Part shown: positions 782 to 35,093 of the stretch, piece after piece
How positions within the stretch are numbered: the first letter of the stretch is position 1
How the letters are laid out: every line of letters begins with the position of its first letter
NCBI GenBank assembly: GCA_037349105.1
Contig: JAYJMM010000019.1
Location: 682,001 to 746,000 of the forward strand
Direction: 5' to 3'
DNA length: 64,000 nt
DNA from: Limnomonas spitsbergensis
Lineage: Eukaryota; Chlorophyta; Chlorophyceae; Chlamydomonadales
Made by a program: the position numbers and the translations under genes
The notes under the pieces: generated by a model
Seen by the model: only the letters and a program-made list of their open reading frames with translations
The model's database searches: none
Told to the model about the DNA's origin: nothing

Positions 782-3700
782 GATATTGCGTCTAGCCCCG
801 GGTGATCCTGATGCATGCGCCTGGTTTCCCGGTGCCCGCTACAACGTTGCTCAGTGCGCGCTCAGCGCCTGCAGAGCCACCTGCAGAAACAGCAGAAGCA
901 ACGGGGGCAGAAGCAGGAGCAGGGGCGGGGTATCGTTGCAGCAGGCCGCACATGCGCCGGCGGTTGTTTACGCTGAGGAAGGCGACCCCGAGCGGCTGCA
1001 CACAATGAGCCTGGATGAGTTGCGGGCCGGGGCAGCGCACGTCGCAGCTTGTGTACGGTGTCTCGCGCAGCCTGGTAGGGATGGGAGGAGGTGGATGTGT
1101 GTGTGTGTGTGGTAGGAGGGGGGGCTTGTGATGAGACGTATAAGATGTATTAGTACGCAAGTGTGTATTATTTTGTCTGGACTTGGACTTGGCTTATACC
1201 TGGTGTCCCTGGTGGTGACGCTATTGCCATAGCCATGCCGATAGACCATACACCCTCAACCGTTTACTGCAGGTGATGCCATTGCCATAGCCATGCCAAT
1301 AGACCCTCAACCCTCAACCCTGTACTGCAGGTGATGCCATTGCCATTGCCATGCCGATAGACCCTAAACCCTAAACCATGAACTGCAGGTGATGCCATTG
1401 CGATTGCCATGCCGATGACTGTCGAAGCTGTGGTGGTGTACCTGGGGATCGTTCTGGCAGGCTGCGTGGTGGTGTCCATGTGAGTTGAGGGAGGAAGGTA
1501 GGGAGACAGGGAGGCAATGGTGTACCTGGGGATTGTTCTGGCAGGCTGCGTGGTAGTGTCCATGTGAGTTGAGGGAGGGAGGAAGGTAGGGAGACAGGGA
1601 GGCAATGGTGTACCTGGGGATTGTTCTGGCAGGCTGCGTGGTAGTGTCCATGTGAGTTGAGGGAGGGAGGAAGGTAGGGAGACAGGGAGGCAATGGTGTA
1701 CCTGGGGTTTGTTCTGGCAGGCTGCGTGGTAGTGTCCATGTGAGTTGAGGGAGGGAGGAAGGTAGGGAGACAGGGAGGCAATGGTGTACCTGGGGGTTGT
1801 TCTGGCAGGCTGCGTGGTAGTGTCCATGTGAGTTGAGGGAGGGAGGAAGGTAGGGAGACAGGGAGGCAATGGTGTACCTGGGGGTTGTTCTGGCAGGCTG
1901 CGTGGTAGTGTCCATGTGAGTTGAGGGAGGGAGGAAGGTAGGGAGACAGGGAGGCAATGGTGTACCTGGGGGTTGTTCTGGCAGGCTGCGTGGTAGTGTC
2001 CATGTGAGTTGAGGGAGGGAGGAAGGTAGGGAGACAGGGAGGCAATGGTGTACCTGGGGATTGTTCTGGCAGGCTGCGTGGTAGTGTCCATGTGAGTTGA
2101 GGGAGGGAGGAAGGTAGGGAGACAGGGAGGCAATGGTGTACCTGGGGGTTGTTCTGGCAGGCTGCGTGGTAGTGTCCATGTGAGTTGAGGGAGGGAGGAA
2201 GGTAGGGAGACAGGGAGGCAATGGTGTACCTGGGGGTTGTTCTGGCAGGCTGCGTGGTAGTGTCCATGTGAGTTGAGGGAGGGAGGAAGGTAGGGAGACA
2301 GGGAGGCAATGGTGTACCTGGGGTTTGTTCTGGCAGGCTGCGTGGTAGTGTCCATGTGAGTTGAGGGAGGGAGGAAGGTAGGGAGACAGGGAGGCAATGG
2401 TGTACCTGGGGGTTGTTCTGGCAGGCTGCGTGGTAGTGTCCATGTGAGTTGAGGGAGGGAGGAAGGTAGGGAGACAGGGAGGCAATGGTGTACCTGGGGG
2501 TTGTTCTGGCAGGCTGCGTGGTAGTGTCCATGTGAGTTGAGGGAGGGAGGAAGGTAGGGAGACAGGGAGGCAATGGTGTACCTGGGGGTTGTTCTGGCAG
2601 GCTGCGTGGTAGTGTCCATGTGAGTTGAGGGAGGGAGGAAGGTAGGGAGACAGGGAGGCAATGGTGTACCTGGGGATTGTTCTGGCAGGCTGCGTGGTAG
2701 TGTCCATGTGAGTTGAGGGAGGGAGGAAGGTAGGGAGACAGGGAGGCAATGGTGTACCTGGGGGTTGTTCTGGCAGGCTGCGTGGTAGTGTCCATGTGAG
2801 TTGAGGGAGGGAGGAAGGTAGGGAGACAGGGAGGCAATGGTGTACCTGGGGATTGTTCTGGCAGGCTGCGTGGTAGTGTCCATGTGAGTTGAGGGAGGGA
2901 GGAAGGTAGGGAGACAGGGAGGCAATGGTGTACCTGGGGGTTGTTATGGCAGGCTGCGTGGTAGTGTCCATGTGAGTTGAGGGAGGGAGGAAGGTAGGGA
3001 GACAGGGAGGCAATGGTGTACCTGGGGGTTGTTCTGGCAGGCTGCGTGGTAGTGTCCATGTGAGTTGAGGGAGGGAGGAAGGTAGGGAGACAGGGAGGCA
3101 ATGGTGTACCTGGGGGTTGTTCTGGCAGGCTGCGTGGTAGTGTCCATGTGAGTTGAGGGAGGGAGGAAGGAAGGGAGACAGGGAGGCAATGGTGTACCTG
3201 GGGTTTGTTCTGGCAGGCTGCGTGGTAGTGTCCATGTGAGTTGAGGGAGGGAGGAAGGTAGGGAGACAGGGAGGCAATGGTGTACCTGGGGGTTGTTCTG
3301 GCAGGCTGCGTGGTAGTGTCCATGTGAGTTGAGGGAGGGAGGAAGGAAGGGAGACAGGGAGGCAATGGTGTACCTGGGGGTTGTTCTGGCAGGCTGCGTG
3401 GTAGTGTCCATGTGAGTTGAGGGAGGGAGGAAGGTAGGGAGACAGGGAGGCAATGGTGTACCTGGGGGTTGTTCTGGCAGGCTGCGTGGTAGTGTCCATG
3501 TGAGTTGAGGGAGGGAGGAAGGAAGGGAGACAGGGAGGCAATGGTGTACCTGGGGGTTGTTCTGGCAGGCTGCGTGGTAGTGTCCATGTGAGTTGAGGGA
3601 GGGAGGAAGGTAGGGAGACAGGGAGGCAATGGTGTACCTGGGGGTTGTTCTGGCAGGCTGCGTGGTAGTGTCCATGTGAGTTGAGGGAGGGAGGAAGGTA

Positions 3701-6700: not shown

Positions 6701-9700
6701 GGAGGCAATGGTGTACCTGGGGGTTGTTCTGGCAGGCTGCGTGGTAGTGTCCATGTGAGTTGAGGGAGGGAGGAAGGAAGGGAGACAGGGAGGCAATGGT
6801 GTACCTGGGGGTTGTTCTGGCAGGCTGCGTGGTAGTGTCCATGTGAGTTGAGGGAGGGAGGAAGGAAGGGAGACAGGGAGGCAATGGTGTACCTGGGGGT
6901 TGTTCTGGCAGGCTGCGTGGTAGTGTCCATGTGAGTTGAGGGAGGGAGGAAGGAAGGGAGACAGGGAGGCAATGGTGTACCTGGGGGTTGTTCTGGCAGG
7001 CTGCGTGGTAGTGTCCATGTGAGTTGAGGGAGGGAGGAAGGAAGGGAGACAGGGAGGCAATGGTGTACCTGGGGGTTGTTCTGGCAGGCTGCGTGGTAGT
7101 GTCCATGTGAGTTGAGGGAGGGAGGAAGGAAGGGAGACAGGGAGGCAATGGTGTACCTGGGGGTTGTTCTGGCAGGCTGCGTGGTAGTGTCCATGTGAGT
7201 TGAGGGAGGGAGGAAGGAAGGGAGACAGGGAGGCAATGGTGTACCTGGGGGTTGTTCTGGCAGGCTGCGTGGTAGTGTCCATGTGAGTTGAGGGAGGGAG
7301 GAAGGAAGGGAGACAGGGAGGCAATGGTGTACCTGGGGGTTGTTCTGGCAGGCTGCGTGGTAGTGTCCATGTGAGTTGAGGGAGGGAGGAAGGTAGGGAG
7401 ACAGGGAGGCAATGGTGTACCTGGGGGTTGTTCTGGCAGGCTGCGTGGTAGTGTCCATGTGAGTTGAGGGAGGGAGGGAAGGAAGGGAGACAGGGAGGCA
7501 ATGGTGTACCTGGGGGTTGTTCTGGCAGGCTGCGTGGTAGTGTCCATGTGAGTTGAGGGAGGGAGGAAGGAAGGGAGACAGGGAGGCAATGGTGTACCTG
7601 GGGGTTGTTCTGGCAGGCTGCGTGGTAGTGTCCATGTGAGTTGAGGGAGGGAGGAAGGAAGGGAGACAGGGAGGCAATGGTGTACCTGGGGGTTGTTCTG
7701 GCAGGCTGCGTGGTAGTGTCCATGTGAGTTGAGGGAGGGAGGAAGGAAGGGAGACAGGGAGGCAATGGTGTACCTGGGGGTTGTTCTGGCAGGCTGCGTG
7801 GTAGTGTCCATGTGAGTTGAGGGAGGGAGGAAGGAAGGGAGACAGGGAGGCAATGGTGTACCTGGGGGTTGTTCTGGCAGGCTGCGTGGTAGTGTCCATG
7901 TGAGTTGAGGGAGGGAGGAAGGAAGGGAGACAGGGAGGCAATGGTGGTACGCACCCTTTGCATGTTTTGTACAAACGGTACTATGATGTACCTGTTGCTC
8001 ATGCTTCTGCGACCACGTCTCAGCCAGATCTTGTAACTAGGGATGCTCCTGGCAGGCTGCGTGGTAGTGTCCATGTGAGTTGAGGGAAAGAGGAAGGAAG
8101 GGAGACAGGGAGGTACAGAATAGGGGGGGGGGGGGTACCCCTGGTACGCACTCTATGAACTGTACATTGTATACACATGCCATTTATGTGTCTGCGGCCT
8201 CAGCCAGTTCAAGTACCTAGGGAGGGTCCTGGTTGGCTGTGTGGTAGTGTCCATGTGGGTTGCAGAGTGCGTGCTAGAGGGAAGGAGGGAGGGACATGCC
8301 CTATTTCCATGCACACGTGATTCATGTTTTTGCAGCCTCAGCCATTGCTAACGCCTGGTCCTTGCTGGCTGTGTGATGGAGTCTATGTGGGTCGAGGACT
8401 GGGGCTTCACTCTTCAGGCTGACCCTACTCTTAAAAATAAAACAACATTAAAAGGTTAAGGGACATCACAAGTTTTAAGTCAATTATAATTAACATAACC
8501 AACAACCTTAAAAAACCTTTTGTTTAAGAATTTAAACCCTGCCTGCCCTCCTATCCTCAGTCCCCACCAATAGCCTCTAGTGCGGACACCTTCTCCCTGC
8601 TGAGATCTGCCCAGTTGTTCATTCCACGAGCCAAGCTTTCCACGTAAGCCTGGCACCGCTCTGCCTGTCAGCGTCTCTGGCTACAAAGAAACAGCTATTC
8701 ATCACATAAATTGGGGAACTTCATAAAGCCTCATCCCTCCCCCCCCATTTCCTCCAGTGCGGACAGCTTCTCCCCTGCTGAGATTGCCTCCCGATTGGCC
8801 ATCTCTCACGCCAAGCTGATTGTCACGCAAGATGTCCTCATTCGGGCGGGGAAGGCGCTGCCCATGTACTCAAAGGTGTGAAGCAGGCCCGCACCATATC
8901 CTGAAAGTGTTCCTGTCCCAATGCATCCACTCCCCGTACCTTCGTTTTTGATGGCCCTCCCAAAGGCTTGGCCATCAGGCAGGGCATTAGGGCAGGGACT
9001 TATCTTCATCTTGGGAATGAACAGAAATCCACACCCACCTCCTTCTTCTTCACATGGGCGGTGATTTTCCATCGGATGAGGACGTCTTGCGAGAGGATCA
9101 GCCGGGCCAGGCTTCGGCCCAGGCTGCGCTGTTTTCTGAACTCTCCCGCCCCCCAAGGGGCATAGCTTCTTTCTTTCATCCACCAGCACATCGCCCTCGA
9201 CACCTTCCAGGACCTAGGCACTTGGCAGGTCCTACTTTTCACCTTTGACTACGTGGGCAGCGCCGTAAACTCTTAGACCATGCAGGTTCTTCGCGGTTTT
9301 GTTTATTTGTTTATTTGTTTTTTACCTCCACTACAAGATTTTGCATGGTCGGTACCGACCATGCAGGTACCGATTAAAGAAGAAAAAAAGTGTTTGCAGA
9401 AGATTTTACGCTCGCCTGATGAGGATGTCTTCCACCTTAGACTACGTGGGCAGCGCCTATCCGACCTGATGAGGACGTAATGCGTGACTCTACGCTATAA
9501 GCGCACGTTGCGCTCCGTCAAATTCGTTAACTCAGGTTGGGAGTTTTTAAGTTGCAGAGAAGGTACATGCTCTCAAAATACACCTCCTGCCTCATGTACC
9601 TCTCTCGCCTCTGGTTGACAGGTGATTGAGGCCAAGGCACCCAGAGCCATCGTGATGACGGCTAGATCAGCAGGCTCGGCAGCAGCAGGATCTAGATCTG

Positions 9701-12700
9701 CAGGCGCGGCGGCAGCAGCAGGATCTAGAGCAGCTTGTGCGGGCGCTAATGAGTTGGGACCGGCCCTACCCCTTCGGCCTAGAGACCTCTCATACGCTGC
9801 ATTCAGGGCCCTGGCTCCGGAACCAGATCACAACGGCATCGCCAGCTCAGCGGCCAGATCGTGGTGGCAGGCGCCGGAAGCTTCCACCGGCGGCGGTTCC
9901 GGATCCGGAACCCAAGCCAGATCAGCGCCGTCGGGCATGCCGGCGGGCGGGAGCCGCCTGCCACCGGATACCAACGATATGCCTTACGTTCCTTGCTGCT
10001 CCTCTGACACGAATATCTTGTTCTCCAGCGGAACCACCGGGGAGCCCAAGGCCATTGCCTTCACTCACCTGACGCCCCTGAGGGCTTGGGTGGATGGCTG
10101 GGCTCACCAGGACATACAACCGGGTGAGGGGCAGCGTTTATTTCAGTACGTGCCAGAGTCCTTTGGGGGGCCGCCGGGCGGCCATTACTGGTCCAATGGG
10201 GACCAAACCTTGGCCGGCTCATCAAGACATACAGCCGGGTGAGGGGATACTGAGGAGCACCAGTGTTATTTTTTCGGCTACGAGTCCACCTTCGGCAGGC
10301 TGCCCTGCGGCCGCAAGAGGCCCGATCCGGGGCTAGCCAGGATTGGCCCACGGCTGGTGGCCAAAGCAGCATGGCTGGCCACAAACGGGGCATCCGGCCG
10401 TTGGCATGAGTGTAGCTGACGAGTAGCTGAGTCACGAAAAAAGAATCACTGACTGGAGCACTTTTCTTCCTTATGGGGCCCTGTCCACTAGCTTGCCTTG
10501 CCTCCTCTGCTGCCTCAATAAACATTGCATTGACAGGCGGTGTGGTCTGCTTGCCCACTAGCCTGGACTGGATGATGGAATGACTCCCTTCCCTGCTAGC
10601 TATTACCGAAACCCTCAAGGCTATTACCTCCACTGTGTTTATGATTGGCAGGTGGCGTGGTCTGCTGGCCCACTAGCCTGGGGTGGATGATGGGCCCATG
10701 GCTCATCTACGCTACGCTCCTCAATGGGGGGACCATAGCTCTGTACCATGGCACACCCCTGGGTCGAGACTTTGGCCAAGTGAGTCTTGCGCAGAAAGAG
10801 TACCATGGCATGCCCCTGGGGAGGGACTTGGTCCTGTGGGTTTGAGTACCCTGTGCAATGTTTGCCTCTTTCTCTATTTGCTGTGCGACCTTGTTGTGAG
10901 CTTGGTACTTCACTCTTGTTCACACATTCACCAAGGCCCCTGTTTTAGGGTATTAGCAGTGTTTCCTAGAATATTTAGATCATGGCAAATTGCAATGCAT
11001 GATTAGTTATTGGCACATGGTTGTAACGAATCCACCCTGGAGCCTTATGGATAGTCAGCCACCGACGAAACCTCTGACGCTTGCTTGTTTATTTATGTAC
11101 CGTCCTATAACTTACCACCAACCCCAAAAACCGCATCATTTTAATGAAAATACTGAGCGAACGAATTGTATGAACTTCACGCTTTATCTCCACGCCTTCA
11201 CTTCCTCATGGTCCCCAAAATGATTGCCTCCCGGTCCCCCACTCCCTGTCCCCTCCCACCACGACCGTTCTGTCCAGTTTGTAGCCACGGCCAAGGTGAG
11301 CGTGCTCGGCATTGTCCCCAGCATCGCGAAGGCCTGGCGGAGTAGCGGCTGCATGCAGGGCCTGGACTGGCCTTCACTGAGATGCATCAGCAGTACAGGT
11401 GTGGGGCTGTACATGTACCACAGCAGTACAGATTATGAGTACTGCAAGCCCTGGCGGAGTAGCGGCTGCATGCAGGGCCTGGACTGGCCTTCACTGAGAT
11501 GCATCAGCAGTACAGGTGGGGGGCTGCATGTACCACAGAAGTACACATCATGAGTACTGCGAAGGCCTGTCGGAGTTGCGGCTGCATGCAGGGCCTGGAC
11601 TGGCCTTCACTGAGATGCATCAGCAGTACAGGTGGGGGGGCTGTACATGTACCACAGCAGTACACATTATGAGTACTGCAAGCCCTGGCGGAGTAGCGGC
11701 TGCATGCAGGGCCTGGACTGGCCTTCACTGAGATGCATCAACTATAGGGCTGGCGCCTGTTTCTCCACTCCCCCCTCATCCCTCCCCCCCCCCCCTGCCC
11801 TGCTGCTCAGGTGAGGCCCCCGCTCCCGACGACAGCTTTAGGGCTGGCGTGTTTTTCTCTACTCCCCCCTCATCCCTCCCCCCCCTTGCCCTGCTGCTCA
11901 GGGGAGGCATCCGCTCCGGACGACTATCAGTGGCTCATGGCCATGACCAGGTACCATACACAACAGGCAGTACTGGTTTAAGGGTTTGGGTTTTGGCTAT
12001 GACCAGGTACTGGACAGCAGGCAGTGGCTGATTTATGGGTTGACTGGCTGGGCCATGACCAGGTACCATACAACAGGCAGTACTGGTTGAAGGGTTCGGG
12101 TTTTGTTCACGACCAAATTTACTGCAAGGTATCGTCAGTTTCAGTATTGGGCCATGACCAACTTCACAGCAGCCAGTGGTTTCCTCGTCAAGGGTTCAAC
12201 CATTGTCAGGTTTACAGCTGGCAATCGCCAGTGAAAAGGGGGGGCCTTGACCAGCTTCACAGCAGCCAATGACATGTGTCAGGACTCACGAACCTGTTGT
12301 TGTTGGGGCCATGAGCCATATCAGCATCATGCTAGTCTATCAAGAGCTTGTCATGGTTGCCTTTTTTCAACCTCATGCGGGTTCCAGGGCATGCTGGTAC
12401 CAGGGCATGTTGTAGCACGTGATTTACCACTAAAATATAAATGTGATGTGCCTTGGGGTTTGGGTTACGTGAAGACGTCCAAAATCCTGCCCTGGCCCTC
12501 CCCCCCGCATCCTGCCTCGTCCCATCCCGTCCCGCCCGGCAACAGCCCACCCCCCTCCACAGTATCGCCCCTTCATGGAGGTCTGTGGCAGCACACAAAA
12601 AGCAGAGGCTGCGCATCCTGCCGCCTTCTCCAGCCCCAGATCCCCTTCCCCCTCCCCTTCCGCTTCCATCCCTTGACACTCCCCAAACCTATCCGGCTGG

Positions 12701-14854: not shown

Positions 14855-14859
14855 TGTAA
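14855..14859 (+). terminator. Possible TGTAA polyadenylation signal of the acyl-activating enzyme gene
   Basis: TGTAA, the usual poly(A) signal of volvocine green algae, occurs 234 bases after the stop codon. Other TGTAA copies follow near 14936 and 15008, so the choice is uncertain. Confidence 0.25.
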
Positions 14860-23600: not shown

Positions 23601-26600
23601 AGGAGAGGAGCGTATGTACGAGTGGGGGGGAAGGAGGAGAGGAGCGTATGTACGAGTGGGGAGGAAGGAGGAGAGGAGCGTATGTACGAGTGGGGGGGAA
23701 GGAGGAGAGGAGCGTATGTACGAGTGGGGGGGAAGGAGGAGAGGAGCGTATGTACGAGTGGGGGGGAAGGAGGAGAGGAGCGTATGTACGAGTGGGGGGG
23801 AAGGAGGAGAGGAGCGTATGTACGAGTGGGGGGGAAGGAGGAGAGGAGCGTATGTACGAGTGGGGGGGAAGGAGGAGAGGAGCGTATGTACGAGTGGGGG
23901 GGAAGGAGGAGAGGAGCGTATGTACGAGTGGGGGGGAAGGAGGAGAGGAGCGTATGTGTGAGTGGGGGGGAAGGAGGAGAGAAGCGTATGTGTGAGTGGG
24001 GGGGAAGGAGGAGAGGAGCGTATGTACGAGTGGGGGGGAAGGAGGAGTGGAGCGTATGTACGAGTGGGGGGGAAGGAGGAGAGGAGCGTATGTACGAGTG
24101 GGGGGGAAGGAGGAGAGGAGCGTATGTACGAGTGGGGGGGAAGGAGGAGAGGAGCGTATGTACGAGTGGGGGGGAAGGAGGAGAGGAGCGTATGTACGAG
24201 TGGGGGGGAAGGAGGAGAGGAGCGTATGTACGAGTGGGGGGGAAGGAGGAGAGGAGCGTATGTACGAGTGGGGGGGAAGGAGGAGAGGAGCGTATGTACG
24301 AGTGGGGGGGAAGGAGGAGAGGAGCGTATGTACGAGTGGGGGGGAAGGAGGAGAGGAGCGTATGTACGAGTGGGGAGGAAGGAGGAGAGGAGCGTATGTA
24401 CGAGTGGGGGGGAAGGAGGAGAGGAGCGTATGTACGAGTGGGGGGGAAGGAGGAGAGGAGCGTATGTACGAGTGGGGGGGAAGGAGGAGAGGAGCGTATG
24501 TACGAGTGGGGGGGAAGGAGGAGAGGAGCGTATGTACGAGTGGGGGGGAAGGAGGAGAGGAGCGTATGTGTGAGTGGGGGGGAAGGAGGAGAGGAGCGTA
24601 TGTACGAGTGGGGGGGAAGGAGGAGAGGAGCGTATGTACGAGTGGGGGGGAAGGAGGAGAGGAGCGTATGTGTGAGTGGGGGGGAAGGAGGAGAGGAGCG
24701 TATGTACGAGTGGGGGGGAAGGAGGAGAGGAGCGTATGTACGAGTGGGGGGGAAGGAGGAGTGGAGCGTATGTACGAGTGGGGGGGAAGGAGGAGAGGAG
24801 CGTATGTACGAGTGGGGGGGAAGGAGGAGAGGAGCGTATGTACGAGTGGGGGGGAAGGAGGAGAGGAGCGTATGTACGAGTGGGGGGGAAGGAGGAGAGG
24901 AGCGTATGTACGAGTGGGGGGGAAGGAGGAGAGAAGCGTATGTGTGAGTGGGGGGGAAGGAGGAGAGGAGCGTATGTACGAGTGGGGGGGAAGGAGGAGA
25001 GGAGCGTATGTACGAGTGGGGGGGAAGGAGGAGAGGAGCGTATGTACGAGTGGGGGGGAAGGAGGAGAGGAACATATGCGCGAGGGGTAGGGATGGGGGG
25101 AAGGAGGGGAGGAGCGCATGTATGAGTGGGGGGGAAGGAGGAGAGGAGCGTATGTACGAGTGGGGGGGAAGCGTATGTGTGTGGGGGGGAAGGAGGAGAG
25201 GAGCGAATGTACGAGTGGGGGGGAAGGAGGAGAGGAGCGTATGTGTGAGTGGGGGGGAACATGTTGCCCTAAAGAACAAAGTATGGGACATGTTGCCCTA
25301 AAGAACAAAGTATGGGACATGCCCACTGTCCACACACCTGACCCGGCACATGTCCGGTCGCCTGTAGTTCCCTGATAGGCACGTGGCCCCCCTCAAAACA
25401 TCGGCCACGAGGGCCCAGTTGAACCTGAACTCAGTCACAGCAGCCGCCAGCATGCTGCAGGGGGGAGCAAGAGGGCACAACAGTCAGCACCGGGGACAGG
25501 AGGGGGAGGAGCGCCAGCATGCTGCAGGGGGGAGCAGGAGGGGGAGGTGGGTCAGCATCGGGGACAGGAGGGAGAGGGGGGCCAGCATGCTGCATGGGGG
25601 AGCAGGAGAGCACAACAGTCAGCATCAGAGATGCGGGACAGGAGGGAAGGGGCCGTCACGGGGAGTGGGCCGTAGTGACCCCAGGGGAAATGAGGTGAAG
25701 TGACATGGGGGAGATGAAGGCTAGCATGCAATAAAAGGATCGACCTGACCATGGCAATTTATTTGAACCAGAGATTTGCTTTGCCTTCCCTCATACTTCA
25801 CGTTGTTTGGGGTTGAGGGATGCATGAATACACTAATTTTCAATTGTCGACGCCAGTATTCAGAGGGAAATTTAGAGTTTTTGATGACAGTTTACCGTGA
25901 GGGCAACATTAAAAGAATTTGTACCGCACATTATATTTACAGGACAGTGGTTGCAGTGCTGAGCCTGTGGCTCACTGCCCCCCCCCCCTTCCTCATCATT
26001 CATCAAGACCCTGTTCAGTGCAACAACAACAACGGAGCACTCACTTATCATCCAACGGGCTCCACACAACGACCCGGTCCGCGCCGTTCAGCTGCCCCAC
26101 CGCCGCACCCATGCCCGCGCCCGGCCGACCGTAGCCCGCGCCAGAGCGGCCGGACATAGAGGGCATGCGCTGCAGCGCGTCCAGGCGCGGCAGGCTGCCC
26201 GGCGGCCGCGGCTGCGCCGCGCCGCCAGGGACGGCCCCCACGCCGCCGAGGCCGCCGCCTCCGCCAGGTGCTCCGGGTGCCTTGGGTGCGCGCGGCAGGC
26301 CCATACCTGCCGCCACAGAGGCGCGACGCACATCAATGGGACCGCCGGTGATCTCGCGCTCGTTGCCGCCACCGCCACCGCCAAGCGTGGAGCTTCGGGT
26401 GCCAAAGCGTCCAAGGCGGTCGCGCTTGTTTGAGGGCAGCCCGCCGGGCATGCCAATGTTGTAATCCTCGTCATCGTTGACAAAGTCACGGACCTGGTGG
26501 GCAGTTGGGGGTGGGCAGCAGGGTTCAGGGTGGGGGGCAGGGTTCAAAGTGGGGAGCAAAGGTTTGGGGTGGGGAGCAGGGTTGAGGGTGGGGAGCAGGG

Positions 26601-29600
26601 TTAGGAGCAGGGTTTGGGGTTAGGAGCAGGGTTTGGGGTTGGGAGCAGGGTTTGGGGTGGGGAGCAGGGTGCAGGGTTGGGAGCAGGGTTCAGGGTTGGG
26701 AGCAGGGTTGGGAGCAGGGTTTGGGGTTGGGAGCAGGGTTGAGGGTTGGGAGCAGGGTTTAGAGTGGGGAGCAGGGTTTGGGGTGGGGAGCAGGGTTCAG
26801 GGTGGGGAGCAGGGTTTGGGGTTGGGAGCAGGGTTCAGGGTGGGGAGCAGGGTTCAGGGCGGGGAGCAGGGTCTGGAGTGGGGGGCAGGGTTTGGGGTGG
26901 GAAACAGGGTCTGGGGTGGGGAGCAGGGTGCAGGGTTGGGAGCAGGGTTTGGAGTGGGGAGCAGGGTTCAGGGTGGGGAGCAGGGTTTGGAGTGGGGAGC
27001 AGGGTTTGGGGTGGTAAGCAGGGTTTGGGGTGGGGAGCAGGGTTCAGGGCGGGGCGCAGTGTTTGGGGTGGGGAGCCGTGTTTGGGGTAAAAACACATTT
27101 GAACCTTCCCAGGTGACAGAGTGCAAGGTAAGGAAGTTGAAATGCAAAACCACAGCCATCACAGATGTTTAGGGTTCAGCACACAGCCCCAACAGGAGCA
27201 CCAGTAAAGGTTGATTGTTGTCAACCCTGCCCCCCTTATGCAAAACCACGGCCTCAACATGTATTTTTCCTCTCCCACGCCCTCGGCAATTATCCCGACC
27301 CATAATCTCCCACACAGCCCCGGGGACAACAGCCCCGGGGACACTGCCCCCCCCAGCTTCCCCTCTCCCTTCACCCCCCCCCCCTCCCGCCTTTCCCCCC
27401 TACCACTCTGCCTACTAGCCCAGGTCATCCAGCCTGTTCTCCCACCACCACTCCCAACCCCCATACCTTGCGCTGCCTCAACTCCCCCCTGACCAGGTCA
27501 ATCAACCCGCTGGTGAGCAAGGTTGAGGGGTCAGCCCTAACGGCAAGCCCTACAACTTAGACCGACATGGCCAGGTGTATGGGCCATGCAAAATCTTATG
27601 GCAAGATCATGCAGTAGATTCTACAAGATTTTGCAGAATCATTGCAAGACTAGCGTAAAATCTTCTCTCATGCCTCCATCCCCGTTATGGCTCCCCGTCC
27701 CGTCCCCATTCCCATTCCGCAACCTAACCTTGAGTCCTTATCTCCCCTGCTCCCTCTCTCCTTGCGTTGACTCGGCTCCATCGGGCAAGTCATCCAGCCC
27801 GCTATCAAGCAGCCTAGGCGTTGTGATCAGGCATCCCACACCTCCACCCCTCCCGCCTCCCCCCTCCCTTACCTTGACTTTTCTCCGTTCCATCTGGCAA
27901 GTCATCCAGCCCGCTGTCTGACAGCCAGGGTGTCGTGGCCAGGCGGCCCATGCCTACGCCCCCTCCCCCTCCCCTTCCCAACCGACCTCCATCCACTCTG
28001 CCCGCTCCCTCCCCACTGCCTACTCCCTCCCCTCTGCCCGCTCCCTCCCCTCTACCCACTCCCTCCCCCCTGCCCGCTCCCTCCCCCCTGCCCACTTTCT
28101 CCCCCCTGCCCGCTCCCTCCCCTCTGCCCGCTCCTTCCCCCCTGCCCGCTCCCTCCCCTCTGCCCACTCCCTCCCCTCCGCCCGCTCCTTCCCCTCTGCC
28201 TGCTCCCTCCCCCCCCTCTGCCCACTCCCTCCCCCCTGCCTGCTCCCTCCCCTATGCCCGTTCCCTCCCCTACGCCTGCTCCCTCCCCTCTGCCCACTCC
28301 CTCCCCTCTGCCCACTTTCTCCCCCCTGCCCACTCCCTCCCCTCCCTCCAAGTTTCCTCCACTCCATCTTTCCCAAGTCATCCAGCCAGCTGTCTAGCAG
28401 CAAAAGTGTCATGGCCAGGCAGCCCACGTTCCTGCCCCTGGCAACCACCTTCCCCCTTTCCCCCGCTCACCCTCCCGGGCTCCCTCCCATACCCTGCCCC
28501 CTCTAACCTTGCGTTTTGTAGGTTTTATCCAACCCGCCAACAAGCAGCGGCGGTGTTGTGGCCAGGCGTCCCACACCTCCACCCCGGCCGCCACCCCCCT
28601 CCCCCCTCCCCACACCAGTGCTGTGGCCAGGCGTCCCACACCTCCACCTCTCCCCCCTCCCCCATCCCACACCCTGACTCATTACCTTGCGTTTTCTCCG
28701 TTCCATCCGGCCCAAGTCATCCAGCCCGCCATCAAGCAGCGGCGGTGTTGTGGCCAGGCGTCCCACGCCTCCGCCCCCGGCCGCCGCTCGCCTCATTGCC
28801 TTGTTGCTAGTGAGGCCGCCGACGCCCGTGTCCAGGTAATCCCCGATGTCCCCATCAGGCAGCATCAGAGACATTGGCTTTGACGTGTGCCTGGGGGGAG
28901 AGGGACGTGATATTGCTTTATATATATGTCTTGTGAATACCCAGCATAGAATACCTGGCGTGGGGTTACAAAGGTAGGGCCAGGGCTAAGGGTTCAGAGA
29001 CAAGGCTTGTAGCTAGAGAGGCCCCCGACGCCCGTGTCCTGATAGTCCCTGATGTCTGCATCAGGCAGCATCAGAAACATTTGCTTTGAGGCGCGCCTGA
29101 GGGGAGAGGGACGTAATTTTGCTTTATTTCCTTTTTGTGTACACCCGGCACCTAAGGTTGGCGTGGGGTTACAAAGGTAGGGCCAGGATTTGGGGTTCAG
29201 AGACATGGACTTGTAGCTGGGGAGGCCCCTCCACGCGCGTGTCCTGATAGTCCCTAATGTCCGCATCATAGACATTGGCATTGAGGCGCGCCTGGTGAGT
29301 TTTTTTTACCCGGCACCCAAGACTGGCGTGGGGTCACAAAGGTAGGGCCAGGGTTTGGGGTTCAGAGACATAACTTATAGCTGGAGAGGCCCCCAATGCC
29401 TGTATCCTGAGAGTCCCTAATGTCTGCATCAGGTAACATCAGTGGCATTGGCTTCGAGGCGCGCCTGGTGGGTGGGCCAAGGGCCCTGAGCTTCCAGGCG
29501 TGCCTGGTGGGGTGGCAGGGTGGGGAGGATGGAATGCGAGCAGAGGTTGGGGATACATAAGGGTTGCAGCGTCATGTACCCATACACAACCATCTTGCTA

Positions 29601-32600
29601 AACAGTAATTTAATATCAAGCTATTGGATGTCGGGGGGCTGCAGGGGAGGCGAGAGGGCGAAGATCCACAACCAGAGGGGTCGGACTGCCAGCTCCTGTC
29701 CTTAAAGTCATGAATGCATCCATCTGATACTATTTTTTCAAAGGGCCGAGCAGTGCAGACTGCAGAGACATCAAGAGAGTGAACAGCATCATGGAGCTAT
29801 AAGAAAGAAGGGCAGGCAAAAAACCCGGCATGAAGCAAAAGAAACGCTAGGCGACACTGCTTTATCACGGAATCGGCTTCCATGCACCCATGGCTCACCC
29901 CCCCAGCCTCCAGCAAGCAGCAACACCTCTCTTAACTGGCGCTGGCCGCTGCCTAGGTTAATCACACGAACCCATCAACAGGCCTCCACCTCCTACCACA
30001 CACCCATCCTGATAGCTGCAGTACATCACTTGATTTACCCCTCCCCCACAATACCCCCATCCCTACCACACACCCCTCCCGATAGCTGCGGCACATCTCT
30101 TGAACCGTGCCGCCTAGGTGCTTAAGGCTGCCTAGTGGAGGGTCTAGGTGGCTCAGCATCTACAGCCCACTTACCACCCCACCCAACAGAGCTGCGGCAT
30201 TACGGCGCAACTCTTCATCTGTGCCGCCTAGGTGCTAAAGGCTGCCTAGTGGAGGGTCTAGGTGGCTCAGCATCTACAGCCCACTTACCACCCCACCCAA
30301 CAGAGCTGCGGCATTACGGCGCAACTCTTCATCTGTGCCGCCTAGGTGCTAAAGGCTGCCTAGTGGAGGGTCTAGGGGGCTCAGCATCTACGGCCCACTT
30401 ACCACCCCACACAACAGAGCTGCGGCATAACGGCGCAACTCTTCATCTGTGCCGCCTAGGTGCTAAAGGCTGCCTAGTGGAGGGTCTAGGGGGCTCAGCA
30501 TCTACGGCCCACTTACCACCCCACACAACAGAGCTGCGGCATAACGGCGCAACTCTTCATCTGTGCCGCCTAGGTGCTAAAGGCTGCCTAGTGGAGGGTC
30601 TAGGAGGCTCAGCATCTACCACCCACCCATTACCACCCACACCAGAGGTTTGCCGCAGCATACCTCTTCATCTGTGCCGCCTTTGCGCTGGCCGCCACTG
30701 CCGCCTCCTCATCCTCCGGCGGCAGCGACCACCTCGCCGCGTCGTACGCCGCCTCGTAGGCCGCAGCTGCGACGCCGTGCCTCGCCAGCCGTGCAACGTC
30801 CTCCTCCTCCAGCTGCGCCAGCACGCCGGCCATCAAGTCCTCGGCGGCGGGGAAGTATAGATCCGACGGGAAAAGGAACGGATCCGGCAGGGGTGGCGTA
30901 GGAGGTCCGGATGTGTCATCGGCAGCCGCGGCAGTTGCAGCCGCCACAGCTGTAGACACAGAGACACAAGGGCAGGGAAGTGAGCAACCAAACACATCCA
31001 CACATACTCATACATATGGTTGCATTTTTTAGTACTGTGTGGACATGCTTTGCCTGACGTAAAATCTGTTGCATTCTTGTTGGAGGGTGAGGACATTGTT
31101 GGATGGTGAGGGATACTGTATCGGTGCATCGTAATACTATTTTGCGATCGTGTACGCTGGTTCTCAGTCATAAATCAAGGCTTGTGATCCATTATTTGCA
31201 CCGAAGGTGGAATACGGCAATTTGTTTTGTGAACCAAGGCGACGCAATTCAAATCCAGGGTGAAGAAGTACCACTGGCACAGCTAGGATAATATGCCCTT
31301 GCCGTTAACGGTTCCGTTCATGTTGCCCTCATAAATAAGGTATCAGGCTGACGGTAGGAAGGGCTTGTTCCTTGGGGTCTGAGCCAACAGCAGGCAAGGC
31401 TTGGGTTCTGAGCCAACAGCATAGTTTGAGGTGTACGAATCAGGGTCCGATCCAACAACTGCAAGGTCTACTCAATTCAGCTGTCTGGTGAGCGGTGCTC
31501 CGTGAGGCCTACACTTGACAGGTGTGTGAGGCACAGGCAGCTGTCAAAAACACCCCATCACGTGGAATGTTTGCAATCTACCTTTTGCCGTTTTCCTGGC
31601 TTAGGGTTTAGGGTTAAGGGTTCAGGGTAAACCCTTGACAGGCGCGTGAGGCACAGGCAGCTGTCAAAAACACCTTATCATGTGGAATGTTTGCAATCTG
31701 CCTTTTGCCGTTTTCCTGGCTCGTGTCTCCTCTCTCTGTTGTTCCTGTTTACTGTATATTTGATTTACTTTACCGGGATTAGCAAATGTATATTGCGTAA
31801 TTATTAATGTTGTTTGGGGTTGAGGGATCCGTGAATTTACTGATTATGGTCGCCAGTTTTCAGTCAGAAATGAAGATTTTTTGTCGACAGTTTGCCCTGA
31901 GGGCAGCATGAAAAGAATTCGTTTTTTAATGCCCGCAGGGAGGCAAATCGAATCTACGGTATATACCACCTGGCTATTTTTCTTGCGCGGTTTCCGCTCA
32001 AAGTTTATGCTCGAACAACGACCAAGAGGCTCTGACCAGACATTGAATAAATAGACCACCAGTAACACACGTGCATGCCATTGGGAACAGTGCTCATGAA
32101 GATAAGGAACGTCAGACCTGGGAGAAAGCGAGACAGAGATGCTGTAATTTGCATGCAAAAGCGGGATATAGGCAGGGGGGCGGGTGCGCATTTAGCTGCT
32201 GATAACCGATTGGCCAAACTGCCCTACCCTGCCCACCCTGCCCTGCCCTTACACATGTAGAAACCAACTTCTCCCCACTCTGTGCTTGATTCTCGCCAGA
32301 TCTCTCGTAGTCAAGCATGTAAGGTCAACAATACTTCTGGTTCCCGTAGAGATGCTGAAAAAAGCAAATTACGTGTACTGCTTTTTTAATAACTCTACCA
32401 AAATATGTAGGGTTATATATTAGGGTTACATATTTTGGTAGAGTTCTTATTTGTAACCACCCAGCCCGATCTGCTCGTCCTCTCACCCTTGGACGCCAAC
32501 TTCTCCCCTTCCGCGCTTCCTCCGCGCTTCTCCCGCCCGCCCCGTGTTGCAGCCGCTGCCGGCGCAGCCTCTGTCTTGCCATCCATGCGCACATGCCCGA

Positions 32601-35093
32601 GCTCTGATTCGGCAGCCGCAACACAGGCGGTCACGCGCGTCTCCACCCGCTTCAGCTTGGATCGATCGAATTGACAGGCCTCCTGGCATAGGCGCACAGC
32701 TGCGGCCTGCCTCCAAAGCCGCTCCTGAAGTTGAGCGTGATTAAAGGTAAGGGATCATCAACCAGCGCCACGGCTGTGGCCTGCCTCTCAGTCAGACGTC
32801 AGTCTTTAGGTTTGAGGGTTCAGCGTCACGGTTGAGACCTGCCTCCACAACCTCTACTGCGGTTAAAAAACATTATTCAGGAACACGTCACGGCTCGTTT
32901 GTGAGACGAGGGACCAGAGAGGCAGGGGTTATTTAGGTTTTGGGGATACAGGTTGTGGTTGTCAGGATTGGTCGCCAGGGACAAATATACAGGCCAAGAC
33001 GAGGAAAGGCTTACATGCAGCTATGCCGTAGCGTGAGGGGCCCATGCACCCATGGCATAGCGTAAGAAGACCATGCACCCATGGCATAGCGTAAGAAGAC
33101 CATGCACCCATGGCATAGCGTAAGAAGACCATGCACCCATGGCATAGCGTAAGAAGACAATGCACCCATGGCATGTCGTGAGCGGCAAATGCACCCAAGG
33201 CATTGGCACATGGCATGGGCAATCTATGCACCATGGAATAGTGTGAACTGCCCATGCACCCTTGGCATAGCATGGGCAATCCATGCACCATGGCATAGCG
33301 TGAATTGCCCATGCAGGCATGCACCCTTGGCATAGCACGAGCGGCCCATGCACCCTTGGCATAGCATGGGCAGCCCATGCACCCTTGGCATAGCGTGAAC
33401 TGCCCATGCACCCTTGGCATAGCGTGAACTGCCCATGCACCCTTGGCATAGCACGAGCGGCCCATGCACCCTTGGCATAGCATGGGCAGCCCATGCACCC
33501 TTAGCATAGCATGGGCAGCCCATGCACCCTTAGCATAGCATGGGAAGCCCATGCACCCTTAGCATAGCATGGGAACTGCCCATGCACCCTTAGCATAGCA
33601 TGGGCAGCCCATGCACCCTTAGCATAGCATGGGAACTGCCCATGCACCCTTGGCATAGCATGGGAAGCCCATGCACCCTTAGCATAGCATGGGAACTGCC
33701 CATGCACCCTTAGCATAGCATGGGAACTGCCCATGCACCCTTGGCATAGCATGGGAAGCCCATGCACGCATGGCATAGCGTGAGCAGGCCATGCAACCAT
33801 GGAAAAGCATGAGTGACCCATGCAAATAGCATGAGCGGCTCATGCAACCATGGCAGCGCACGAGCGGCCCATGCAAACATGACAAAGTAAATGCAAACAA
33901 AGCATAGCTCAAGCGGCCCTCTCCATGACGGCCTTGCCAGCGTCGATCCATGCACAACCACAGCTTGACATCCCAGATAGCCTGGCAACCATGTATGCGC
34001 CTTATCTGGGAATTTCTATTGCAGCATTTCGGGTGAAGGGCTTAGAACTGGGGATTCTTCTTAATCTGTGCTCCCCTAATCCAGAGCGTAGACCTTGAGG
34101 GCTTTCAATATGTACGTGCATGTCAACTGCATAGAGCACTAGGCCATCCACTGCCTCTCCCTCAGTAGGTTGTCCATCCATGCACACATGCACTTGCACC
34201 AAAGTAATGGTTTAAACCGAAGCCCTCCCCCACACACATACACGCACCTACAAGTGGTCTTCTGCCATGCACTGCCCTTCCCTCAGAAGCCCAAACATGT
34301 CCCCACGCACTTACATGAAGGTTTTGGTTGAAACTGAATCCCCCCCTCGGCCCCTCCCCCGTCACATTCGCATGTACGTGTATTCCTCCGCCATGCACTG
34401 CCTTTCCTCAGGAGGTGGCCCACATATATCCGCAGGCACCTGCATGAAGGTTAGCCTCCACCCCTTACCCTCCAACCACACGCACCTGCATAAAGTCCTC
34501 TGCCATCCACCGTCCTTCCCTCAGCAGATAGTCCCAATGGCCCATTGGTCTCCGTGGCTCCACAGTGGGGTAATGGTAAGCGGGCGCCAGCTGCTGCCAC
34601 ACTGCCTGGAGACCATGGCACGCAAGATTGGTTAACTTTGGCTCAGAGGCCCGAGTCTCCTTCTTCAGCGGATATTTTAGGCGTGTGGGGACTGACCGCA
34701 CTTGCATTTAATGGGGGGGGGGCACACGCATTGAGCGGGACGGGGGGGCGCCCGCGTTCGCTTTGAGACGGGTTATCTCGGATGAGTGTTGTGGAGGACG
34801 GTGGCAATGAGGTTCAAGGATAAGATAGTGGTTATGTTATGCACGCATGGTGCCTGGGTCAGCATGAGAGACGTGGTATTGATGGGCATATCGTGGAGAG
34901 AGTAGTCGTCATGGGCAGCATGGGGTGGTGGAGAGGATACTTAAAACGTTGTTGCTTTTGTAATGTTGGTTTTATCAAGCACCTGAATGGCGTTGGCCTT
35001 CTCAGTCAGCTGCGCCTCCTTGGCCAGTGTCTCGCTCGATGCGGTTGCATGGGAGCTTGTGCCAGCGACAGGAGCACCACCCTCCTCAGCCAT
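17625..35093 (-). CDS. EAF1: EAF1/VID21-like NuA4 histone acetyltransferase scaffold, HSA-SANT protein (complete, ten exons)
   Basis: Nuclear scaffold of the NuA4 complex, which acetylates H4/H2A. Exons from 5': 35093-34983, 34605-34486, 32724-32487, 30949-30664, 28890-28686, 26493-26045, 25454-25338, 22692-22581, 20603-20433, 19121-17625. All introns are GT/AG, all phases match, and the product has 1101 residues. The ATG follows an in-frame TAA five codons upstream. HSA domain, about residues 59-125: [18 protein letters not shown] joins [16 protein letters not shown] across an intron, very close to plant EAF1. SANT/Myb, about 463-512: [33 protein letters not shown]. The segment VLTPLEINP near 620 matches the block that precedes the Gln-rich tail of plant EAF1. 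Residues about 640-1090 are Gln/Ala/Pro/Gly/Met-rich. At 1101 residues it is much shorter than plant EAF1, and exons 4-6 are Ala/Gly-rich without clear domains. Exon ends are supported by homology and phase only. Confidence 0.92.
19140..19225. repeat. Short tandem repeat before the last EAF1 exon
   Basis: GAAAAGAGGTCATTAGGGG recurs about three times at 27-28 bp. On the EAF1 strand this is a pyrimidine-rich CCCCTAATGACCTCTTTCC repeat lying just upstream of the acceptor at 19122, so it echoes the pyrimidine-tract region. Confidence 0.75.
20098..20395 (-). repeat. Two decayed copies of EAF1 exon 9 3' end and donor
   Basis: The antisense of the exon end (GATGGCTGGCGTGCTGTTCG, then CGGTAGCGGTGCGCCTC) recurs at 20318-20385 (CATGCTGGCTGGGGTGCCG, then CGGTGGCACTGCGCCTT) and at 20118-20190 (GGAGCGGTTTGCC, GCCTGCCTCTCGCG). 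Donor-side GT sits in the matching place on the minus strand. A separate TCTACCGGGATCAAAAGATC repeat lies between them (20225-20290). Confidence 0.8.
20604..20730 (-). repeat. Echoes of EAF1 exon 9 acceptor and 5' end
   Basis: Read on the plus strand, the exon edge TCTCCTTGGCCTGAAGAA with GGTGGCGCGCTTCAGCTACA-like intron (20594-20635) is repeated at 20650-20697 (TCTCCTTGGCCTAAACAA, then GTGGCGCGCTTCAGCTAC) and partly at 20703 (TCTCCTTGGGCAGCG). The copies include the acceptor position. Confidence 0.85.
21320..21702. repeat. 18-bp minisatellite, about 21 perfect units, in EAF1 intron 8
   Basis: The unit GGAAGTTCAACAGGCCCA is repeated almost without variation. Because 18 is a multiple of three and the unit has no stop in several frames, open frames run through on both strands; none has support as a gene. 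The near identity of units suggests recent expansion. Confidence 0.95.
22130..22580 (-). repeat. Four tandem echoes (about 110 bp) of EAF1 exon 8 3' end and donor
   Basis: On the minus strand exon 8 ends CAACATGATGCAGGAGCTCC, CTAAGCAGCAG, then GTGGGTC. Downstream one finds CAACATGATGCTTTAGCTCC with AAGCATCAG and GTGGGTC, then CAGCATGATGCTTAAGCTCC with AAGAAACAG and GTGCGTC, then CAGCGTGATGCGAGAACTC, and finally CAACATGATGCTGCAGGATT with CAG and GTGGG near 22205. Several keep good GT donors. The spacer GGATCCCTAAGCAAGAG repeats too. Confidence 0.92.
22700..25258. repeat. 34-bp minisatellite, about 75 units, in EAF1 intron 7
   Basis: Plus-strand unit: GTACGAGTGGGGGGGAAGG then AGGAGAGGAGCGTAT. 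Variants include GTGTGAGTG, AGTGGAGCG and GGGGAGGAAGG; the edges (22740-22800, 25060-25110) have a related longer unit with AACATATGCGCGAGGGGTAG. On the EAF1 (minus) strand it is pyrimidine-rich and directly precedes the acceptor at 22693, where the genomic CATCACTCACAGGTATGTTG resembles CCACTCACACATACG variants, so it may be an expanded acceptor region. All six frames stay open. Confidence 0.95.
25262..25325. repeat. Direct duplication of a 32-bp intronic segment
   Basis: ACATGTTGCCCTAAAGAAC followed by AAAGTATGGG occurs twice in tandem right after the donor of the SANT exon on the EAF1 strand. Confidence 0.9.
25505..25625 (-). repeat. Two echoes (67 bp) of the SANT-exon acceptor and first codons
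   Basis: On the minus strand the SANT exon starts CCCCCCTGCAG then CATGCTGGCGG. Copies CCCCCCTGCAGCATGCTGGC (25513-25535) and CCCATGCAGCATGCTGGC (25580-25605) lie 67 bp apart upstream, each with CTCCTGTCCCCG-like pyrimidine sequence between. Confidence 0.85.
26505..27095. repeat. G-rich minisatellite upstream of the EAF1 exon 6 acceptor
   Basis: About 25-30 degenerate units like GGTTTGGGGTGGGGAGCAG, mostly 19-28 bp. On the EAF1 strand this is CTGCTCCCCACCCCAAACC, a pyrimidine-rich repeat that runs into the acceptor at 26494 (CCCCCAACTGCCCACCAG). The open frames across it are artefacts. Confidence 0.93.
27400..28660 (-). repeat. Five or more echoes of EAF1 exon 5 3' end and donor, with a C-rich array inside
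   Basis: Exon 5 (minus strand) ends with the segment encoding [19 protein letters not shown], then CGCAAGGTAATG. Plus-strand antisense copies lie at 28501-28590 (CCTTGCGTTTTGTAGG, GTTGTGGCCAGGCGTCCC), 28345-28435, 27868-27955 (CCTTGACTTTTCTCCG, GCAAGTCATCCAGCCCGC), 27757-27845 (CCTTGCGTTGACTCGG) and a partial at 27415-27450. Several keep GT donors. Between them, 27960-28340 is a CTCCCTCCCCTCTGCCC array of about 18 bp. Confidence 0.92.
28990..29475 (-). repeat. Three echoes of EAF1 exon 5 acceptor and 5' end
   Basis: The exon 5 start, antisense CGCCCGTGTCCAGGTAATCC, CATCAGGCAGCATCAG, ACATTGGCTTTG, recurs at 29020-29100 (CGCCCGTGTCCTGATAGTCC), 29235-29295 (CGCGTGTCCTGATAGTCC) and 29395-29470 (TGCATCAGGTAACATCAG). 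The first copy extends beyond the acceptor, with GGGGAGAGGGACGTAAT. On the minus strand the copies encode [21 protein letters not shown] variants of [17 protein letters not shown]. Confidence 0.92.
30085..30663 (-). repeat. 114-bp tandem array echoing EAF1 exon 4 3' end
   Basis: CTCTTCATCTGTGCCGCC, the antisense of the exon 4 end (encoding AAQMKR), recurs at 30211, 30325, 30439 and 30553 (period 114 bp) before the real copy at 30664, with a weaker fifth near 30097. In the copies the donor GTATGC is replaced by TTGCGCC. On the minus strand each repeated exon tail is preceded by TTTAGCACCTAG, so acceptor-like AG now abuts an exon fragment. Confidence 0.93.
31500..31725. repeat. Tandem duplication of about 125 bp in EAF1 intron 3
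   Basis: CTTGACAGGTGTGTGAGGC to TTTTGCCGTTTTCCTGGC at 31515-31602 is repeated at 31634-31721 (CTTGACAGGCGCGTGAGGC). TTAGGGTTTAGGGTTAAGGG lies between the two copies. I cannot tie it clearly to an exon edge. Confidence 0.85.
32750..32880 (-). repeat. Two echoes of the EAF1 HSA exon 3 acceptor and start
   Basis: Antisense of the exon start GCACAGCTGCGGCCTGCCTC (32691-32710) recurs as GCCACGGCTGTGGCCTGCCT (32767-32786) and GTCACGGTTGAGACCTGCCT (32826-32845). Both continue into degenerate versions of the acceptor region. Confidence 0.82.
33020..33860. repeat. About 30-bp imperfect minisatellite in EAF1 intron 2
   Basis: Two unit types: CCATGCACCCATGGCATAGC with GTAAGAAGA (33045-33175), and GCCCATGCACCCTTAGCATAG with CATGGGAA/CTG (33240-33780). 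Roughly 28 units, many of odd length. Open minus-strand frames ([20 protein letters not shown]) come from the repeat only. Confidence 0.93.
34120..34465 (-). repeat. Three echoes of EAF1 HSA exon 2 3' end and donor
   Basis: The real exon end (antisense CGCACCTGCATAAAGTCCTC, GCCATCCACCGTCCTTCCC) recurs at 34369-34420 (GCCATGCACTGCCTTTCC), 34242-34290 (CGCACCTACAAGTGGTCTTC, GCCATGCACTGCCCTTCC) and 34128-34172 (GCCATCCACTGCCTCTCC). On the minus strand these encode variants of [11 protein letters not shown] followed by GTGCGTGT-like donors. Confidence 0.88.

What the first reader, a model, noticed from the sequence alone, without database searches (positions are those of the whole stretch)
782..35093. 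Rule across two genes: introns carry copies of the nearest exon edge, donor copies downstream and acceptor copies upstream
In the acyl-activating enzyme and EAF1 genes nearly every intron I checked has tandem or decayed copies of an exon edge. After an exon they are copies of its 3' end plus the GT donor; before an exon they are copies of the AG acceptor plus its 5' end. The two genes are unrelated and on opposite strands, so this looks like a genome-wide process. It gives intron growth by repeated duplication across exon-intron borders and fills introns with decoy splice sites and pseudo-exons. I know of no described system with this regular directionality.
Basis: partly seen in the sequence, partly recalled or inferred. 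Interest (0 to 1): 0.93.

Follow-up and report, generated by a model that had tools for sequence, protein, structure and literature searches.

The report
Telomere-laced tandem duplications across exon edges
In this green alga (a snow alga, judging by its assembly statistics), introns carry many short tandem duplications that run over exon borders no more often than they occur inside introns, and many also hold pieces of the genome's own telomere repeat, which were likely added while broken DNA was being repaired.

Summary
The copies are real and lie on the stated side. In AAE and EAF1, 11 of 22 exon edges have a significant copy in the adjacent intron, fewer than "nearly every". In kinesin genes of the same genome, 28 of 210 edges have a same-side copy within 300 nt, against 0 of 167 wrong side and 3 of 210 antisense. 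But intron-internal windows are copied about as often (edge/interior ratio 0.81, 95% CI 0.40-1.27), and uniformly placed tandem duplications predict how far copies reach into exons on the donor side. The side rule is geometry plus purging of duplications within exons. Beyond the finding: the seven most over-represented intron 8-mers are permutations of the genome's telomere repeat TTTAGGG. Telomere-like tracts occur in 35 of 119 introns and 0 of 161 exons and at 9 of 29 junctions of edge duplications. Orientation is polar: TTTAGGG after donors, CCCTAAA before acceptors (donor side also by genome-wide motif counts). Inferred mechanism: break repair, sometimes with telomeric filler, sorted by splicing constraint.

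The parts
795..1074 (+). AAE exon found by the profile alignment (start of the aligned part)
1389..1479 (+). AAE exon; both edges are end units of arrays
8758..8875 (+). AAE exon
9622..10123 (+). AAE exon
10652..10779 (+). AAE exon
11278..11398 (+). AAE exon
11902..11950 (+). AAE exon
13001..13283 (+). AAE exon
14019..14621 (+). last AAE exon with stop codon
1214..1416 (+). 58-bp array of the acceptor and first ~28 nt of exon 1389-1479, running into the exon
1358..1383 (+). CCCTAAA-type telomere-like tract between the last copy and the real acceptor
1434..7946 (+). 88-bp x 74 array of the last ~46 nt of exon 1389-1479 plus donor
8581..8611 (+). decayed copy of the 5' edge of exon 8758-8875 (spacing 177)
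10209..10238 (+). copy of the 3' edge of exon 9622-10123 (spacing 115)
10537..10566 (+). copy of the 5' edge of exon 10652-10779 (spacing 115)
11486..11749 (+). three copies of the 3' edge of exon 11278-11398 (spacings 117, 233, 351)
11938..12105 (+). array of the 3' edge of exon 11902-11950 plus donor
   Evidence: weak in the edge test (p=0.033)
11975..11996 (+). TTTAGGG-type tract after the donor of exon 11902-11950
13379..13401 (+). TTTAGGG-type tract about 96 nt after the donor of exon 13001-13283
34983..35093 (-). EAF1 exon 1
34486..34605 (-). EAF1 exon 2 (start of the HSA domain)
32488..32724 (-). EAF1 exon 3
30664..30949 (-). EAF1 exon 4 (borders by eye)
30089..30626 (-). 114-bp array with copies of the 3' edge of EAF1 exon 4
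29262..29464 (-). two copies of the 5' edge of EAF1 exon 5 (spacings 195 and 368 from 29096)
32805..32836 (-). telomere-like tract, CCCTAAA type on the sense strand, before EAF1 exon 3

Best explanation
The introns carry many local tandem duplications that overlap exon borders no more often than they occur inside introns, and many introns hold tracts of the genome's own telomere repeat that were likely patched in during repair of broken DNA. Shown: the duplications (spacing median about 90 nt), no excess at borders, the decay of copies over about 90 nt of exon, the tracts, their absence from the exons examined, and their polarity near splice sites. Inferred: (1) staggered breaks are filled in and rejoined, which duplicates the overhang; (2) at some breaks telomerase adds TTTAGGG repeats to a 3' end before joining, giving units of exon edge + splice site + telomeric tract; (3) units then expand by slippage or unequal exchange, as minisatellites do; (4) duplications inside exons are lost to selection, and so are TTTAGGG tracts just before acceptors (they carry AG) and CCCTAAA tracts just after donors, which leaves the mirrored polarity.
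For: Uniform-breakpoint model without fitted parameters, donor side: expected 10.5, 7.8, 6.0, 4.6, 3.4, 2.0, 1.4, 0.9, 0.4 copies at increasing exon depth, observed 11, 10, 7, 6, 4, 1, 0, 0, 0 (neighbouring depths overlap). Copy rate across the donor: 13-22% at intron positions 0-100, 17.5% at the last 30 exonic nt, 0-2% from 90 nt inward. TRF on 119 introns with up to 100 nt of each exon: 9 introns with an array crossing the donor, 5 the acceptor, 43 with one inside the intron, none wholly exonic. The seven most over-represented 8-mers are telomere permutations (CTAAACCC in 16 of 119 introns, 1.2 expected); CCCTAAA is first of 20 heptamer classes of equal composition (35 introns, next 21). 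The repeat at the start of contig C1 has the same unit. Junctions telomere-like in 9 of 29, random intron windows 3.7%; kinesin junctions 7 of 22 against 2.8 expected at random in the same introns, P=0.008. Intron-internal windows within 40 nt of a tract have a local copy in 39 of 70, others in 94 of 591 (neighbouring windows are not independent). Polarity within 60 nt at score 10: donor 15 TTTAGGG to 4 CCCTAAA, acceptor 0 to 15, Fisher 2e-6; at score 13, 10:4 and 0:12, p=2e-4. Genome-wide motif counts: donor motif followed by TTTAGGG 744, by CCCTAAA 263. Units printed.
Against: 20 of 29 junctions are not telomere-like, so most duplications need no telomerase. Edge copy and polar tract within 100 nt: 10/32 against 20/186 (p=0.004), but p=0.07 when stratified by intron length. 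In short units the junction cannot be told from the rest of the intronic part. The degenerate heptamer CCCTCAA, of another composition, marks more introns than CCCTAAA at score 13 (45 against 35), though fewer at 16 (21 against 27) and 20 (11 against 14). Two non-telomeric words, TACGGTA and TACCGTA, rank second and fourth among 7-mers. Composition is itself polar (GGG falls from 5.4% to 0.9%, CCC rises from 1.3% to 5.9% along introns); within 120 nt at score 11 block shuffles give donor 4.4:0.6 and acceptor 1.0:3.4 (TTTAGGG:CCCTAAA) where the data give 15:9 and 2:17, so polarity need not come from telomerase. On the acceptor side copies are at or below expectation at every depth (8 against 13.0 at the edge, P=0.10). 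A replication in other held DNA was inconclusive. No empty orthologous site was available.
Confidence: 0.6

Rival explanations
1. A duplication process aimed at exon-intron borders, for example coupled to splicing or transcription.
For: Strict side and orientation specificity: 28/210 same side, 0/167 wrong side, 3/210 antisense.
Against: No peak at the border; uniform breakpoints predict the donor profile and over-predict the acceptor one; edge/interior ratio 0.81, CI 0.40-1.27; TRF coverage is about 0.11 in the first three intron deciles, 0.20-0.23 in deciles 6-9 and 0.145 in the last.
Confidence: 0.06
2. The telomere-like tracts are ordinary splice signals (G runs after donors; C-rich branch and pyrimidine tracts before acceptors) that only resemble telomere repeats.
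For: Composition is polar in the same sense and AG density is halved before acceptors; shuffles keep part of the polarity; CCCTCAA is also common.
Against: All seven cyclic permutations of CCCTAAA are among the enriched 7-mers and the class beats the 19 others of its composition; tracts also lie in mid-intron.
Confidence: 0.2
3. Interstitial telomeric tracts came first by any route and, being fragile, cause the nearby duplications (cause and effect reversed relative to filler at the junction).
For: Local copies are commoner near tracts (39/70 against 94/591); introns of 300 nt or more with a tract more often hold a TRF array (22 of 34 against 18 of 49, p=0.015); such tracts are fragile in yeast (PMC11626172, passages).
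Against: Many duplications have no tract near them, and 20 edges with a polar tract have no edge copy.
Confidence: 0.3
4. Intron gain by tandem duplication of an AGGT-bearing exon segment (Rogers model).
For: Tandem duplications over GT and AG sites are present.
Against: That model puts copies of the upstream exon's end just before the acceptor and of the downstream exon's start just after the donor. Tested in introns of 600 nt or more: 0/35 and 0/35 at p<=0.01 (one of the 35 upstream-exon windows scores 36 or more). Shorter introns were not tested this way.
Confidence: 0.03
5. Assembly artefact: long-read assembly errors create or expand the arrays.
For: The 74-copy array is 98-99% uniform.
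Against: The assembly paper reports a read L50 of 32.9 kb (PMC11228838, Results part 1), longer than the array; copies at about 60-85% identity are hard to explain as assembly errors.
Confidence: 0.03

Closest known systems
Interstitial telomeric sequences inserted during double-strand break repair in mammals (PMC7215372, PMC2246262; passages read)
   Same: Short runs of the species' own telomere repeat at internal sites; none in exons (human); some insertions with direct duplication of the target, read there as repair of staggered breaks (duplication in 3 of 66 horse loci, plus 2 complex ones).
   Different: Here tracts lie in 35 of 119 introns examined, are in several cases part of tandemly repeated units that include an exon edge, and show opposite orientation at donor and acceptor. 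No empty site was seen here, so insertion itself is inferred.
Intronic tandem repeats of green algae (PMC3887541; passages read)
   Same: Introns are the region richest in tandem repeats in Chlamydomonas and Volvox.
   Different: That paper reports enrichment near intron-exon junctions; here TRF coverage is lowest at the donor end. The passages seen do not describe exon-edge units or telomeric tracts.
Tandem genomic duplication model of intron gain (PMC4974935, PMC2891723, PMC3443670; passages read)
   Same: Local tandem duplication over splice-site sequence.
   Different: Here existing introns are enlarged and the original borders are taken to stay in use; the copy positions that the gain model predicts were not found. 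PMC4974935 mentions an 83-bp duplication inside an intron without following it.
Minisatellites
   Same: Head-to-tail units; in the edge arrays mostly 30-135 nt.
   Different: The first or last unit is the coding exon edge itself.

Membership tests
Border-directed duplication system (as proposed) | Exon edges are copied more often than intron interior | tested here: not met
   Ratio 0.81 (0.40-1.27), 132 edges, 23 loci; no peak
Border-directed duplication system (as proposed) | Copies only on the adjacent side and in direct orientation | tested here: met
   28/210 vs 0/167 wrong side and 3/210 antisense; exception: one inverted copy in AAE
Intronic minisatellites / local tandem duplication | Head-to-tail copies with constant period | tested here: met
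Tandem genomic duplication intron gain | Copies of each exon edge at the far end of the intron | tested here: not met
   0/35 and 0/35 at p<=0.01, introns of 600 nt or more
Interstitial telomeric sequences | Tract has the species' own telomere unit | tested here: met
   (CCCTAAA)n at the start of contig C1; heptamer ranking
Interstitial telomeric sequences | Absent from coding exons | tested here: met
   0 of 161 kinesin motor exons
Interstitial telomeric sequences from break repair | Empty orthologous site in a relative; break site in register with the repeat | not testable with these tools
Introner elements | Near-identical introns dispersed over many genes | not tested
   No all-against-all intron comparison was run

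The most novel reading that the evidence does not exclude
Introns in this alga grow by telomerase-patched break repair: breaks near exons are capped with TTTAGGG, rejoined with the overhang duplicated, and the resulting exon-edge + splice-site + telomere units expand into arrays. Splicing then keeps the G-rich strand after donors and the C-rich strand before acceptors, so telomere DNA has been taken over as splice-site flanking signal across the genome.
Probability: 0.3. Interest if true: 0.8.

Novelty: new variant of a known kind. Interest (0 to 1): 0.5.

Why it matters
It replaces a puzzling border rule by a testable mutation process: intron length in this genome appears to be driven in part by a high rate of local tandem duplication, with exon edges as passengers. 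If the telomere link holds, it names a source for intron growth (repair with telomeric filler) and shows how splicing constraint would sort inserted DNA by strand. It also warns gene annotators: in such arrays one exon edge can have more than 70 near-identical decoy donors.

Tried and rejected
Rejected: border-targeted duplication; Rogers-type intron gain; single capture followed by amplification as a general rule, since some arrays share derived sites (AAE 88-bp: 2; EAF1 exon 4: 19) while others (L055_i7, L010_i2, L041_i8, L039_i7) share none. Inconclusive: polarity in 126 kb of held DNA outside the analysed genes. Not obtained: sequence for a second gene family; PF00118 gave 72 matches but no letters. 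The counterpart count TTTAGGGN{0,30}TTGCAGG did not complete, so acceptor polarity rests on the kinesin set; the CCCTAAA count (766, reversed pattern 22) has no partner. Rows dropped: 62 of 168 predicted introns in the 20 regions failed the filter (both flanking exons at least 33 nt with mean profile score at least 1.0). Seven further loci were run and six of them gave 13 introns, making 119. Kinesin hits formed 50 clusters, of which 27 loci were run. Intron-internal windows were sampled (500 per direction). Literature: ten searches; none of the listed titles or abstracts is about telomere repeats beside splice sites, which is no proof of absence. Papers: PMC11228838 abstract, outline, section 11 and part 1 of section 16; passages of PMC2891723, PMC4974935, PMC3443670, PMC3887541, PMC2246262, PMC7215372, PMC8226300 and PMC11626172; others only as listings. 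The mechanism of staggered-break duplication in general is also recalled knowledge.

Full report
Source. The window is C19:682001-746000 of a 260,226,709-base assembly in 124 contigs. The published Limnomonas spitsbergensis assembly (PMC11228838; abstract, outline, section 11 and part 1 of section 16 read) has 260.248 Mb, 124 contigs and a longest contig of 10.736 Mb; contig C41 here is 10,736,355 bases. I take it to be that snow alga; the match is by these numbers, not by a name. The paper gives a mean intron of 788 bp; the parts read do not mention exon-edge copies.

Observation. The AAE gene (AMP-binding, PF00501; best homologue 55% identical over 98% of the query, Chlamydomonas eustigma) runs on the + strand. 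A profile alignment that did not use my borders gave the same ones. It also proposed a 105-nt intron inside the last exon (14292-14396), which I do not count. Copies of exon edges are present and include splice sites: the 88-bp array after exon 1389-1479, decayed copies at other edges, and the 58-bp array before exon 1389. In numbers: 11 of 22 edges, in 6 of 11 introns.

Independent test. Kinesin motor genes were found in the same genome (143 exon matches); 20 regions were fetched and 7 of the smaller loci added. A profile-guided spliced alignment gave 168 introns in the 20 regions, of which 106 passed, and 119 with the added loci. The side rule holds strongly (28/210 vs 0/167). But windows inside the introns have a copy in the neighbouring 300 nt more often than edges do (136/500 downstream, 139/500 upstream). 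Long repetitive introns weigh heavily in that count, so I repeated it with equal weight per intron: the edge/interior ratio is 0.59 to 1.01 over eight settings, seven of whose 95% intervals include 1 while the eighth (0.29-0.97) lies below it. The profile shows no peak at the border and falls to zero within about 90-110 nt of exon. Taking unit lengths from intron interiors and placing duplications uniformly predicts this profile on the donor side closely; on the acceptor side the observed counts are at or below expectation at every depth, not significantly (8 seen, 13.0 expected at the edge, P=0.10). In AAE and EAF1 alone the edge rate is 6 of 22 at score 32 within 300 nt (27%), the interior rate 23%.

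Why the rule looks like a rule. A tandem duplication that overlaps a donor leaves the exon intact to the left and puts the second copy in the intron to the right; at an acceptor it is the mirror image. A duplication inside an exon would change the protein and be lost. TRF finds nothing in 161 motor exons and arrays in 45 of 119 introns. The array inside the validated AAE exon 9622-10123 (9662-9734) has a 33-nt unit, which keeps the frame.

Telomeric tracts. The seven most over-represented 8-mers in the 119 introns are permutations of CCCTAAA/TTTAGGG; among 7-mers TACGGTA and TACCGTA stand between them. CCCTAAA is the unit at the start of contig C1. Tracts scoring 13 or more are in 35 of 119 introns (shuffles 2 to 7) and in 0 of 161 exons. 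Among 20 heptamer classes of the same composition it is first (35 introns; next 21). Against this reading, the degenerate CCCTCAA, of another composition, marks 45 introns at score 13, though fewer than CCCTAAA at 16 and at 20. In several genes the repeated unit reads exon edge, splice site, telomeric tract (L041_i8, L041_i3, L050_i6, L050_i7, L054_i4; in the window 1214-1416 and 11938-12105). Junctions of edge duplications are telomere-like in 9 of 29; by eye all nine have the G-rich strand on the sense side at donors (3) and the C-rich strand at acceptors (6). For kinesins alone it is 7 of 22 against 2.8 expected within the same introns (P=0.008).

Polarity. Within 60 nt of donors 15 of 109 introns have a TTTAGGG tract and 4 a CCCTAAA tract; within 60 nt of acceptors 0 and 15 (score 10). 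Exact heptamers give 11:3 and 2:13 within 50 nt. Along introns of 440 nt or more (60) the summed density of both strands is fairly even (4.6 to 12.5%), while the strand shifts from G-rich to C-rich. Genome-wide, a donor motif is followed within 30 nt by TTTAGGG 744 times and by CCCTAAA 263 times (reversed patterns 5 and 4). In the contig span common to both capped listings this is 50 against 20 clusters of places (the 20 counted by eye; binomial p=0.0004). The motif also occurs outside real donors, and G-rich composition after donors by itself favours TTTAGGG, so these are supporting counts only. CCCTAAA before an acceptor motif occurs 766 times (reversed 22); its counterpart did not complete.

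Reading. The composition of these introns is polar in the same sense, so I prefer splicing constraint as the cause of polarity: TTTAGGG brings AG, which would be a decoy close before an acceptor. Even placement with strand sorting fits insertion at random places followed by selection. Insertion during break repair by telomerase is inferred from mammals (PMC7215372, PMC2246262; passages), where direct target duplications at staggered breaks are also reported. It would explain telomeric filler at duplication junctions. It is not shown here, and two thirds of the junctions need no telomere.

Verdict. The finding is a true observation with a simple cause for its directionality. What is left, and more interesting, is the link of a high local duplication rate with telomeric tracts beside splice sites.

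Noticed in passing
9054-9110: Inverted, decayed copy of the 3' part of exon 8758-8875 in the intron that follows it (antisense score 34; extent by eye). It breaks the direct-only rule.
   Followed up: partly
9662-9734: 33-nt tandem repeat inside a coding exon of the AAE gene; the unit is a multiple of three.
   Followed up: no
14292-14396: The profile alignment proposes a 105-nt intron inside the last AAE exon, which is otherwise open in frame.
   Followed up: no
22775-25171: 34-bp unit repeated about 70 times, G-rich on the + strand.
   Followed up: no
26509-27088: 19-bp G-rich array whose unit holds GGGTTTA-like telomeric words.
   Followed up: no
31598-31628: Telomeric tract (score 25) in an EAF1 intron, C-rich on the gene's sense strand, beside a direct repeat of about 100 bp (by eye).
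   Followed up: no
G000:C29:68105-76676 (outside the window): Donor motif plus TTTAGGG repeated in an array of many units (26 listed places).
   Followed up: no
G000:C1:101092-101147 (outside the window): Perfect CCCTAAA repeats about 100 kb inside contig C1, listed up to the cap.
   Followed up: no
103 kinesin introns of 200 nt or more: TRF coverage by intron decile is lowest at the donor end (0.11), 0.20-0.23 in deciles 6-9 and 0.145 at the acceptor end, unlike the junction enrichment reported for Chlamydomonas and Volvox (PMC3887541, passages).
   Followed up: partly
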